Numbered from the stretch's first letter, positions 1,701-5,396 are shown. The stretch is DNA of 42,453 nt from Verrucomicrobiaceae bacterium (GCA_027488755.1 JAIYAZ010000010.1:1-42453), one strand, 5' to 3'. The notes: generated by a model not told the origin, from the letters alone. Numbers and translations: made by a program.

Positions 1701-4700
1701 ATGAACCGCTCCTTCACCTCCCTGCTGCTCCTCACCGCCACGTTCACCGCCCCCCTCGCCACCGGCTACGGCCACGGCTCGATGGCCTACCCCATCAGCC
1801 GCTCGTATTCGATCTTCCTCCAAAATCCGCAAACCCCGCAGAACGACGCCGCCCGCGCCGCCATCGCAGTGGCCGGCACGCAGGCCTTCTACGACTGGCA
1901 CGAAGTCAACGGCCTCTTCCCCGCCCGCGACTACCAGGCCCGCATCCCCGACGGCCAGCTCCCCGGCGTCGGCCGCGCCAAATACGCCGGCCTCAACCTC
2001 GCCCGCACCGACTGGGCCGCAACCAAGGTCACCGCCGGCCCGCTCAATTGCGTCTTCTTCGCCGACACCCCGCACGACCCCAGCTACTTCCTGCCCTACA
2101 TCACCAAGGCCGGCTACGACCCGAGCAAGCCGCTCAAGTGGTCCGACCTCGAACCCCTCTCCAACGGCAACGTCGTCGCCCCCCTCGACGGCAAAAATTA
2201 CCGCTTCACCGTCAACCTCCCCGCCCGCACCGGCCGCCACGTCCTCTACGTGATCTGGCAGCGCATCGACCCCGCCGGCGAAGCCTTCTTCTCCACCAGC
2301 GACCTCGACTTCGGCGGCGTCGACTACGGTCCCACGCCCACGCCCCCCGTCGCGCCCAACGTCGGCGGCACCCCCGACGACGGCCACAACCACGGCACCC
2401 CCACACCGACGCCCGCGCCGACTCCGAACCCCACGCCCACCCCGGCCCCCACCGCCACCCCCGCCCCCGGCGCCGCCGGCACCACCGTCACCTTCCCAAA
2501 CGTCATCGCCAGCTTCCGCGTCGTGAGCGACTGGGGCAGCGGATTTGAAGGCCTCGTCACGCTCGAAAACCGCACCTCCTCCCCTCTCCTCGACTGGACC
2601 GTGAGCTTCGACCTCCCGCGCGCCATCTCGCAAATCTGGAGCGCCCGCATCGTCCGCCAGACCGGCAACCGCTACACCTTCGACGCCTCCACCTTCGCGT
2701 GGAACCGCACGCTGCCCGCCGGCGGCAAGGTCAGCTTCGGGTTTGTTGCCGGACCCGGCGGCCTCAGCGCCCCGCCCGCCAACTTCGCCGTCCAATCCGC
2801 CGGCTCCACGCCCGTTGCCACCCCGACCCCGACCCCGACCCCGACCCCGACCCCGACCCCGACCCCGACTCCCACTCCCACTCCCACTCCCACTCCCACT
2901 CCCACTCCCACTCCGACCCCGACTCCCACGCCCACTCCGAAACCCACGGCTACGCCCACGCCGACTCCCGCGCCCACCCCGCAACCCGGCTCGCCGAACA
3001 CCCGCGTGGAATTCCCCGACGCGACCGTCACCTTCACCGTCACCAGCGACTGGAAGAGCGGCTTCCAGGGCGACATCGTCATCCAAAACAAAACCAACCG
3101 CGTGCTCTCGAATTGGGCCCTCCAATTCCAGCTTGGCCGCACCATCGCGAGCCTCTGGAGCGCCCGCCTCCTCAGCGGCAACGCCACCACCGCCTACCGC
3201 ATCGACGCCGCCACCTTCACGTGGAACAAGGACGTCCCCGCCAACGGTCGCGTCTCCTTCGGCTTCACCGCGCAGCCCGGCGACCTCCGCACCGCGCCGA
3301 CCAACTTCGCCCTCACCGTGAACGGCCAGACCTCCACCGGCAGCGGCACCACGTCGCCCACGCCCACCCCGGCCCCCACGGCCACGCCCATGCCAACCGC
3401 CACGCCCCGGCCGACCGCCACGCCCGCTCCGACCCCCGTCGCGACCCCCGCCCCCACCCCCGTCGCCACGCCGATCCCGACCCCCGCTCCCAGCCCGAGC
3501 CCGTCGCCCACACCGGCCCCCTCGGCCTTCAACTACGGCGAGGCCCTCCAAAAATCGCTCTACTTCTACGACGCCCAGCGCTCCGGGAAACTGCCCGCCA
3601 ACTTCCGCGTCATCTGGCGCGGGGACTCCGCCCTCACGGACGGCACCGACGTCGGCCTTGACCTCTCCGGCGGCTACTACGACGCCGGCGACCACGTGAA
3701 ATTCACCCTCCCCGGCTTCAGCACCCTCACCCTCCTCGCCTGGGGCGGCATCGAATACCCCGCCGGCTACACCGCCTCCGGCCAGCGTCCCTTCCTCCTC
3801 GGCGCGGTCCGCTGGGGCACCGACTGGATCCTCAAGGCCAACCCCTCGCCAAACGTCCTCTACGGCCAGGTCGGCAACGGCGGCCTCGACCACAGCTACT
3901 GGGGCCCCGCCGAGACCATGACCATGGCCCGCCCCGCCTACGCGATCACCGCCGCCAAACCCGGCAGCGAAATCGCCGGCGAAGCCGCCGCCGCCCTCGC
4001 CGCCGCCTCCATCCTCTTCCGCGCCGACGACGCCACCTACTCCGCCACCCTCCTCAACCGCGCGAAGCAGCTCTACGCCTTCGCCGACCAATACCGCGGC
4101 ACCTACACCGCCGCCATCCCCGACGCCGCGAACTACTACAACTCCTACTCCGGCTACGACGACGAGCTCCTCTGGGCCGCCGCCTGGCTCTACCGCGCCA
4201 CCAACGACGCCACCTACCTCGCCAAAGCCGAAACCCTCTGGACCCAAAAGTTCGCCAACGCCTCGCTCCGCTGGACCCACAACTGGGACGACAAAGCCTA
4301 CGGCGCCGCCGTCCTCCTCGCCCAGCTCACCGGCAAAACCACCTACCGCGCCGCCACCGAACGCTGGCTGAACTACTGGACCGTCGGCGACAACGGCTCA
4401 CGCATCACCACCACCCCTGGCGGCCTCGCCTGGCTCGCCCAATGGGGCTCCCTCCGCTACGCCACCACCACCGCCTTCCTCGCCTTCCTCTACGCGGACA
4501 AGGTCGGCGACAACGGCACCCGCTACCGCGACTTCGCCAAACGCCAGATCGACTACGCCCTCGGCGCAAACCCCGCCGGCCGCAGCTACGTCGTCGGCTT
4601 CGGCGTCAACCCGCCCAAGAATCCGCACCACCGCACCGCCCACGGCTCCTGGGCCAACAACATCCAGCTCCCCGAGAAGAACCGCCACATCCTCTACGGT

Positions 4701-5396
4701 GCCCTCGTCGGCGGCCCATCCTCCGCGAGCGACACCGCCTACGCCGACGACCGCGGCAACTACATCACCAACGAAGTCGCCCTCGACTACAACGCCGGCT
4801 TCACCGGGGCCCTCGCCCGCCTCGCGCAGACCAACGGCGGCAGCCCGCTCGCCGACTTCCCGCCGCCCCGCGGCGCCTGCCCCACCGGCGCGGAAGTCTG
4901 CACCTGCGAGACCGACGACGAGTTCTTCGTGGAAGCCTCGATCAACCAGTCCGGCGCGAACTTCACCGAAATCCGCGCCCTGCTGAACAACCGCTCCGCC
5001 TACCCCGCCGGCGCCTCCGACTACCTCGCGTTCCGCTACTACGTGGACCTCTCCGAAGTCCTCGCCGCCGGCTACCAGCCCGCGCAGGTCATGGTTACGT
5101 CCAACTACAGCCAGGGCGCGAAAGTCTCCCCGCTCCGCGTCCACGACGCCGCCCGCCGACTCTACTACTTCGAGGTCGACTTCACCGGCACCACCATCAC
5201 CCCCGGCAGCAGTTCGACCTACCGCAAGGAGGCGCAATTCCGCCTCAGCCTGCCCACCAACGCCCCCGCCGGCGCCTGGAACCCCGCCAACGACCCGTCC
5301 TACGCGGGCCTCACCAGCGGCAACCAAAACACCGCAAAAACCCCCGCCATCCCCGTCTTCCAGGAAGGCGAACTCCTCGGCGGCGTCATCCCGTGA
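1701..5396 (+). CDS. Secreted AA10 LPMO - CBM2 - CBM2 - GH9 endoglucanase - CBM3c fusion
   Basis: A 1231-residue multimodular cellulose-degrading enzyme. A signal peptide (1-24) ends just before His25, which begins HGSMAYPISR; this free N-terminal His is what an AA10 lytic polysaccharide monooxygenase needs for its copper site. The second copper His is His125 (TPHDPSYF) and the axial Phe is probably Phe204 (SDLDF). Pro/Thr linkers separate two CBM2-like cellulose-binding domains (about 261-368 and 433-545). The GH9 domain (about 610-1050) has catalytic Asp661 and Asp664 in YYDAGDHVKF and acid Glu1025 in NEVALDYNAGF. A CBM3c-like module (about 1074-1231) follows, as in processive GH9 endoglucanases. 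The frame is open upstream to 1191, but ATG 1701 is chosen because it gives the signal peptide. No Shine-Dalgarno is seen. The AA10 region has only one Cys (Cys117). Substrate cellulose is inferred from the CBMs and GH9. Confidence 0.95.
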   Translation: MNRSFTSLLLLTATFTAPLATGYGHGSMAYPISRSYSIFLQNPQTPQNDAARAAIAVAGTQAFYDWHEVNGLFPARDYQARIPDGQLPGVGRAKYAGLNLARTDWAATKVTAGPLNCVFFADTPHDPSYFLPYITKAGYDPSKPLKWSDLEPLSNGNVVAPLDGKNYRFTVNLPARTGRHVLYVIWQRIDPAGEAFFSTSDLDFGGVDYGPTPTPPVAPNVGGTPDDGHNHGTPTPTPAPTPNPTPTPAPTATPAPGAAGTTVTFPNVIASFRVVSDWGSGFEGLVTLENRTSSPLLDWTVSFDLPRAISQIWSARIVRQTGNRYTFDASTFAWNRTLPAGGKVSFGFVAGPGGLSAPPANFAVQSAGSTPVATPTPTPTPTPTPTPTPTPTPTPTPTPTPTPTPTPTPTPTPKPTATPTPTPAPTPQPGSPNTRVEFPDATVTFTVTSDWKSGFQGDIVIQNKTNRVLSNWALQFQLGRTIASLWSARLLSGNATTAYRIDAATFTWNKDVPANGRVSFGFTAQPGDLRTAPTNFALTVNGQTSTGSGTTSPTPTPAPTATPMPTATPRPTATPAPTPVATPAPTPVATPIPTPAPSPSPSPTPAPSAFNYGEALQKSLYFYDAQRSGKLPANFRVIWRGDSALTDGTDVGLDLSGGYYDAGDHVKFTLPGFSTLTLLAWGGIEYPAGYTASGQRPFLLGAVRWGTDWILKANPSPNVLYGQVGNGGLDHSYWGPAETMTMARPAYAITAAKPGSEIAGEAAAALAAASILFRADDATYSATLLNRAKQLYAFADQYRGTYTAAIPDAANYYNSYSGYDDELLWAAAWLYRATNDATYLAKAETLWTQKFANASLRWTHNWDDKAYGAAVLLAQLTGKTTYRAATERWLNYWTVGDNGSRITTTPGGLAWLAQWGSLRYATTTAFLAFLYADKVGDNGTRYRDFAKRQIDYALGANPAGRSYVVGFGVNPPKNPHHRTAHGSWANNIQLPEKNRHILYGALVGGPSSASDTAYADDRGNYITNEVALDYNAGFTGALARLAQTNGGSPLADFPPPRGACPTGAEVCTCETDDEFFVEASINQSGANFTEIRALLNNRSAYPAGASDYLAFRYYVDLSEVLAAGYQPAQVMVTSNYSQGAKVSPLRVHDAARRLYYFEVDFTGTTITPGSSSTYRKEAQFRLSLPTNAPAGAWNPANDPSYAGLTSGNQNTAKTPAIPVFQEGELLGGVIP
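2820..2939 (+). repeat. Hexanucleotide array encoding a (Thr-Pro)20 linker
   Basis: Twenty tandem 6-base units encode residues 374-413 of the fusion enzyme as uninterrupted Thr-Pro. The first eight units are ACCCCG, the next seven ACTCCC, and the last five are mixed. It links the two CBM2 domains. The blockwise change of unit sequence suggests separate expansions. Every unit is a multiple of three, so gain or loss of units changes linker length without shifting frame. Confidence 0.95.

What the first reader, a model, noticed from the sequence alone, without database searches (positions are those of the whole stretch)
1701..5396. LPMO and processive-type endoglucanase joined in one polypeptide
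One gene encodes a complete AA10 copper monooxygenase, two CBM2 domains, a GH9 domain and a CBM3c module. Oxidative and hydrolytic attack on cellulose are normally separate enzymes; AA10 domains are usually seen with CBMs alone or in chitinase fusions. GH9-CBM3c is the known processive endoglucanase pair, so the chain could oxidise and then run along the same fibre. Catalytic residues of both parts are present.
Basis: partly seen in the sequence, partly recalled or inferred. Interest (0 to 1): 0.85.

Follow-up and report, generated by a model that had tools for sequence, protein, structure and literature searches.

The report
Copper oxidase fused to cellulase
One secreted-type protein of a Verrucomicrobium joins a copper enzyme that cuts polysaccharide by oxidation to a cellulose-hydrolysing enzyme; the same joining recurs in at least 16 related genomes, seems undescribed in the open literature searched, and offers natural constructs for testing whether tethering the two attacks speeds cellulose breakdown.

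Summary
Window 1701-5396 encodes 1231 aa: signal peptide, AA10 (25-206), CBM2, CBM2, GH9 (609-1045), CBM3c (1071-1231), with both copper histidines (H25, H125) and the GH9 acids (D661, D664, E1025). It is neither an assembly chimera nor a one-off: the same order occurs in 5 genomes, one on a 3.76-Mb contig, and AA10+GH9 in one frame in at least 16 Verrucomicrobiota, some also with GH18. AA10 is rare in the phylum (8 of 388 genomes) but mostly joined to a hydrolase there. I found no report of AA10-GH9 fusions. Its specificity pair (His67/Asp122) is neither the chitin nor the cellulose type; GH9-fused members lack the chitin-marker Thr that most chitinase-fused ones keep, a weak hint that specificity follows the partner. 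Two same-genus orthologues at this locus lack AA10. New: a divergent LytS/response-regulator pair and a conserved 21-bp-period direct repeat upstream suggest dedicated two-component control.

The parts
1701..5396 (+). AA10-CBM2-CBM2-GH9-CBM3c gene, 1231 aa
1701..1772 (+). signal peptide, residues 1-24; cleavage would expose His25
   Evidence: sequence; cleavage inferred; N-terminal His kept in all 98 AA10 domains compared
1773..2318 (+). AA10 LPMO domain, residues 25-206; copper ligands H25 and H125; second sphere R188, E194, F196; surface Y64; specificity positions H67/D122
2493..2798 (+). first CBM2, residues 265-366, with W278, W313, W334
2799..3008 (+). Thr-Pro repeat linker
3009..3320 (+). 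second CBM2, residues 437-540
3525..4835 (+). GH9 catalytic domain, residues 609-1045; D661, D664, E1025
4911..5393 (+). CBM3c-type module, residues 1071-1231
1616..1646 (+). direct repeat TTCATCGAGT-N11-TTCACCGAGT, 54 bp before the ATG; candidate LytTR-type operator
506..1564 (-). LytS-like histidine kinase, divergent neighbour (His_kinase PF06580)
3..518 (-). response regulator receiver domain, cut by the contig end; a relative carries REC-LytTR
5504..6364 (-). purU-like formyl transferase, downstream synteny marker shared with the AA10-less orthologues

Best explanation
A secreted, free two-catalyst cellulase. After export and signal removal, His25 and His125 bind copper and the AA10 domain makes oxidative chain breaks on a crystalline surface; two CBM2s on long Thr-Pro linkers hold the protein there; the GH9-CBM3c module, homologous to the processive endoglucanase Cel9A, hydrolyses from the new ends or loosened patches. 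Shown: order, domains, residues, recurrence, conserved operator-like repeat and neighbouring two-component genes. Inferred: secretion, copper loading, cellulose as the AA10 substrate, synergy in cis, processivity, and control by the divergent LytS/response-regulator pair. Tethering is taken to help because it co-localises the two activities, as reported for the AA10-CBM5-GH18 enzyme of Jonesia.
For: Domain and residue evidence. AA10+GH9 in one frame in at least 16 genomes, kept across families of the order and in Cerasicoccus strains. Unfused state on planctomycete-type contigs: an AA10-CBM2 gene right behind a CBM2-GH5-GH9-CBM3 gene. In the own genome this is the only AA10 and one of two GH9s, and no GH20 was found. 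GH9-fused AA10s lack the chitin-marker Thr (0 of 11) that chitinase-fused ones mostly keep (10 of 13). Full-length Jd1381 outperforms its separated domains (PMC10154629).
Against: Nearest characterised AA10s are chitin-active, and the same AA10 clade is as often fused to GH18. The Thr contrast rests on one or two independent partner changes and is not significant once relatedness is counted. Two same-genus orthologues do without AA10, so it is dispensable in this lineage. No usable GH9-CBM3c model; no activity data.
Confidence: 0.55

Rival explanations
1. The AA10 domain acts on chitin, or on both chitin and cellulose, and the GH9 on cellulose: a mixed-substrate enzyme for material holding both polymers (fungal hyphae on plant litter, arthropod or algal debris). 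CBM2s can hold either surface.
For: Closest characterised AA10s are chitin-active; same clade fused to GH18, and GH18 with GH9 in one chain in Cerasicoccus and kin; own genome has a CBM2-GH18 chitinase; the operator-like repeat also precedes CBM2-GH18 genes in relatives; the polar pair H67/D122 fits the polar-pair rule for chitin.
Against: GH9-only fusions lack the Asn/Thr chitin pair; no GH20 hexosaminidase found in the own genome although controls rang; the window protein has no chitinase domain.
Confidence: 0.33
2. AA10 is here in effect a third surface-binding module with little oxidative activity, and the protein is a GH9 cellulase with extra anchoring.
For: Same-genus orthologues work without AA10; the second-sphere Ala next to the copper site is replaced by Thr123.
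Against: Both copper His are kept in all 98 domains compared and R188, E194, F196 are kept; 35 invariant columns across 26 sequences.
Confidence: 0.1
3. The fusion is an artefact of assembly across a Thr-Pro repeat linker.
For: Repeat linkers do break contigs in relatives and in the own genome, e.g. G001:C86/C61 and G000:C58.
Against: Same order in independent genomes, one on a 3.76-Mb contig; the window's flanks match both halves of the orthologous locus (LytS and repeat upstream, purU downstream); the AA10-CBM2 junction is not a long perfect repeat.
Confidence: 0.02

Closest known systems
Jd1381/JdLPMO10A of Jonesia denitrificans (AA10-CBM5-GH18)
   Same: One chain with an N-terminal AA10, a surface-binding CBM and a hydrolase; per the 2023 review the only characterised bicatalytic LPMO
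   Different: Chitin system, GH18 rather than GH9-CBM3c, one CBM (PMC10154629)
Thermobifida fusca Cel9A (E4), GH9-CBM3c
   Same: GH9 60% identical with catalytic acids kept, CBM3c directly behind
   Different: No LPMO at the N-terminus
ScLPMO10D / CbpD / Tma12 (AA10 subclade A2 and kin)
   Same: Nearest solved AA10s, 44-48% identical, VIA Z 28.5-30.1; same Arg-Glu-Phe second sphere
   Different: Not joined to a hydrolase; the Asn76, Thr131 and Ala132 positions are His, Asp and Thr in the window; the window sits in a separate Verrucomicrobiota/Planctomycetota clade, support 100
Ca. Reconcilibacillus cellulovorans cluster and Caldibacillus ManA
   Same: AA10 and GH9-CBM3c cellulase in one gene cluster; AA10 as N-terminal domain of ManA
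   Different: AA10 and GH9 are on separate proteins there; CBM3 rather than CBM2 (PMC6794216)

Membership tests
AA10 LPMO (PF03067) | Family profile match over the curated cut-off | tested here: met
   141.8 bits vs 23
AA10 LPMO (PF03067) | Histidine brace: mature N-terminal His and second His | tested here: met
   H25 after a signal peptide, H125
AA10 LPMO (PF03067) | AA10 fold | tested here: met
   pLDDT 95.3; Z 30.1 to 6if7 (rmsd 1.2, 178 aligned), 27.2 to 4oy7
AA10 LPMO (PF03067) | Copper-dependent oxidative cleavage | not testable with these tools
   needs an enzyme assay
Cellulose-active AA10 (subclade A1) | Aromatic pair Phe/Trp at ScLPMO10D positions 76/131 | tested here: not met
   H67/D122
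Chitin-active AA10 (subclade A2) | Asn/Thr pair at ScLPMO10D positions 76/131 | tested here: not met
   H67/D122; polar but different
GH9 with CBM3c (Cel9A type) | GH9 profile, two Asp and one Glu, CBM3 directly C-terminal | tested here: met
   521 bits; D661, D664, E1025; CBM_3 33.4 bits vs 22.4
GH9 with CBM3c (Cel9A type) | Processive hydrolysis | not testable with these tools
   inferred from homology only
LytTR-controlled promoter | Direct repeats 11-13 bp apart next to a LytS/LytTR gene pair | tested here: inconclusive
   10-bp units 11 bp apart, 13 of 65 upstream regions with 2 or fewer mismatches, against 1 in total at 30 other spacings; LytTR domain seen in a relative, but the window regulator is cut before it (spacing from PMC6193735)
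LytTR-controlled promoter | Regulator binds the repeat | not testable with these tools
   needs EMSA or footprinting

The most novel reading that the evidence does not exclude
A Verrucomicrobiota/Planctomycetota AA10 clade whose hydrolase partner (GH9, GH5, GH18 or several) has been swapped repeatedly, with the copper-site surface changing to fit the partner: a natural series of tethered oxidase-hydrolase enzymes, including AA10-CBM2-GH18-GH9 chains with three catalysts, under one two-component regulon for cellulose and chitin.
Probability: 0.4. Interest if true: 0.8.

Novelty: new variant of a known kind. Interest (0 to 1): 0.6.

Why it matters
LPMO-cellulase synergy is normally studied with mixtures or engineered fusions. 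Here nature supplies AA10-plus and AA10-minus orthologues at the same locus in one genus, fused and operonic versions across two phyla, and GH9 and GH18 versions of one AA10 clade, so the value of tethering and the basis of AA10 substrate choice become directly testable.

Tried and rejected
AlphaFold of GH9-CBM3c from 8 sequences failed (pLDDT 52) and was not used. NCBIfam hits were far below cut-off. GH6 and GH48 searches of the own genome found nothing, but no control genome rang either, so absence is not shown. The residue-partner test had only 1-2 independent pairs once relatedness is counted, so the 10/13 vs 0/11 contrast (Fisher p 0.00015 ignoring relatedness) is a hint only. Literature searches for AA10-GH9 fusions found none; the library is open-access only and CAZy itself could not be queried. 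The Pfam Trypan_PARP hit is a Thr-Pro repeat artefact. Assembly chimera considered and rejected.

Full report
OBSERVATION. Window 1701-5396 (+) is one open frame of 1231 aa. Pfam finds LPMO_10 at 25-202 (142 bits), two CBM_2, GH9 at 612-1038 (521 bits) and CBM_3 at 1077-1159. By PDB sequence search, residues 609-1230 align over their full length with T. fusca Cel9A and with a second GH9-CBM3c enzyme, Cel9G, and 25-211 with AA10 LPMOs. The AA10 domain folds with pLDDT 95.3 and matches AA10 structures at Z up to 30. Catalytic residues: copper His25 and His125, second sphere Arg188, Glu194, Phe196, surface Tyr64; GH9 Asp661, Asp664, Glu1025; each CBM2 keeps three Trp at the usual surface positions (the equivalences to Cel9A and CBM2a are established knowledge).

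NOT A ONE-OFF. A scan of GTDB genomes with the AA10 domain gave 80 loci. Classifying each AA10 frame by its other domains gives AA10-CBM2-CBM2-GH9-CBM3c in five genomes (window G000; G033 = L012; G097 = L124; G098 = L010; G099 = L013, strain LR76), AA10-CBM2(s)-GH9 without CBM3c in G092 = L011, G076, G079, G080, L033 and L034, and AA10 with both GH9 and GH18 in Cerasicoccus frondis, arenae and maritimus (L039, L044, L048), G588 (L130) and L059: at least 16 genomes. Pfam confirmed L034, L039 and L059. G097 carries the gene on a 3.76-Mb contig, which argues against a chimera.

FREQUENCY. In an even draw from the phylum only 8 of 388 genomes have AA10; of these at least 6 have it joined to GH9 and/or GH18. 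In the order, 21 of 213 genomes hold 27 AA10 genes: 9 joined to GH9, 11 to GH18, 5 cut by contig ends, and two without a recognised partner, a 256-aa frame and a divergent 361-aa one (partner calls use BLAST against domains of the window and of L021, L027 and L039).

FUSED, OPERONIC AND AA10-LESS FORMS. On Planctomycetota-type contigs L016, L029 and L032 a CBM2-GH5-GH9-CBM3 gene ends within about 165 bp of the mature AA10 start of a separate AA10-CBM2 gene on the same strand; in L024 the upstream gene is CBM2-GH18. In the window's own genus, G003 has an intact orthologue at the same place (purU 78% identical downstream) that reads signal peptide-CBM2-CBM2-GH9-CBM3c, no AA10, and AA10 was found nowhere in that genome. 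G001 is split by a contig break in the Thr-Pro linker, but its 5' half (C86, next to LytS and the repeat) also reads signal peptide-CBM2. Since family f7 genomes keep LytS next to an AA10-GH9 gene, loss of AA10 in G001/G003 is the simpler reading; gain in G000 is not excluded.

WHICH SUBSTRATE. Best matches by sequence and structure are Tma12, ScLPMO10D and CbpD; ScLPMO10D and CbpD are chitin-active according to PMC10067821, and cellulose-active ScLPMO10C follows at Z 27.2. In a tree the Verrucomicrobiota/Planctomycetota AA10s form one clade (67 rows, SH-aLRT 100) apart from all solved ones included. PMC10067821 names the pair Asn76/Thr131 (ScLPMO10D) as chitin type and Phe/Trp (ScLPMO10C) as cellulose type. 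The window has His67/Asp122, with Thr123 in place of the usual Ala. GH9-only fusions never have Thr at the second position (0 of 11), GH18-only fusions mostly do (10 of 13), and of these two sets Asn occurs only with GH18; relatedness leaves just 1-2 independent contrasts. So cellulose is favoured by partner, neighbourhood and this hint, chitin by kinship; I put cellulose (alone or as well) near 0.55-0.6.

CONTROL OF EXPRESSION (new). Divergent to the gene lie a LytS-like kinase (506-1564) and a receiver-domain regulator cut by the contig end. The pair is next to or near AA10 fusion genes in many relatives, with GH9, GH18 or GH5 partners; the regulator of L018 has REC-LytTR. At 1616-1646, 54 bp before the ATG, is TTCATCGAGT-N11-TTCACCGAGT. 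Of 65 non-identical upstream regions, 13 have such a pair with at most 2 mismatches at spacing 11, against 1 in total at the 30 other spacings tried. In 1.14 Mb of loci every near-exact pair lies just upstream of an AA10 gene (the loci are centred on AA10 genes, so this is not a genome-wide test). Genome-wide, the only exact match in the own genome is this one; looser matches in the own and related genomes include sites just before CBM2 genes, among them CBM2-GH18 genes, along with others of no evident link. LytTR direct repeats are reported to be 11-13 bp apart (PMC6193735). This points to a CBM2-cellulase/chitinase regulon; binding is untested.

COMPARISON AND NOVELTY. A 2014 survey found two AA10 genes with a hydrolase domain (PMC4144037); a 2023 tree of 150 AA10s shows GH5 and GH18 as the only hydrolase partners (PMC10067821); a 2023 review counts one characterised bicatalytic LPMO, the AA10-CBM5-GH18 enzyme of Jonesia (PMC10154629); a 2016 survey found only six proteins with both cellulase and chitinase domains (PMC4928363). 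A 2024 Planctomycetota study notes that their AA10s form their own cluster (PMC11131199). I found no AA10-GH9 fusion described, with the limit that only open-access text was searched. Verdict: real, recurrent, a new variant of a known kind (bicatalytic LPMO-hydrolase), with the cellulose-in-cis mechanism inferred, not shown.

Noticed in passing
window 1616-1646; L010, L013, L017, L018, L111, L115, L118 and others: Conserved direct repeat TTC(A/G)(C/T)CGA(G/C)T-N11-repeat upstream of AA10 genes, beside a LytS/LytTR-type two-component pair; near copies also before CBM2-GH18 genes.
   Followed up: yes
L039, L044, L048, L130 (Cerasicoccus and kin); L059; L021: Chains with three catalytic domains: AA10-CBM2x3-GH18-GH9, AA10-CBM2x2-GH9-CBM2-GH18 and AA10-CBM2-GH5-CBM2-GH18.
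   Followed up: partly
L016, L029, L030, L032: Multi-cellulase CBM2-GH5-GH9-CBM3 genes (the 5' end of the L030 copy is not held) directly followed by a separate AA10-CBM2 gene.
   Followed up: partly
L010, L013, L124: A second GH9 gene lies directly upstream of the AA10-GH9 fusion, in the same direction.
   Followed up: no
window 7633-8955: GH1-family gene, lipoprotein-like candidate beta-glucosidase, same strand, about 2.2 kb downstream; could finish cellobiose.
   Followed up: no
L043, L046, L049-L053, L055, L056 (AA10-CBM2, Verrucomicrobiales): These AA10s carry Trp at the ScLPMO10D Thr131 position, as cellulose-active ScLPMO10C does.
   Followed up: no
G000:C58:1-656 (L171): Another gene of signal peptide-CBM2-Thr-Pro linker behind a near copy of the direct repeat, cut by the contig end.
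   Followed up: partly
window 4878-4907: A three-Cys insert (CPTGAEVCTC, residues 1060-1069) before the CBM3c that the orthologues compared lack.
   Followed up: no
window 9045-12299: Fucose pyrophosphorylase and GHMP kinase domains in one chain, a bifunctional fucose-salvage-like enzyme.
   Followed up: no
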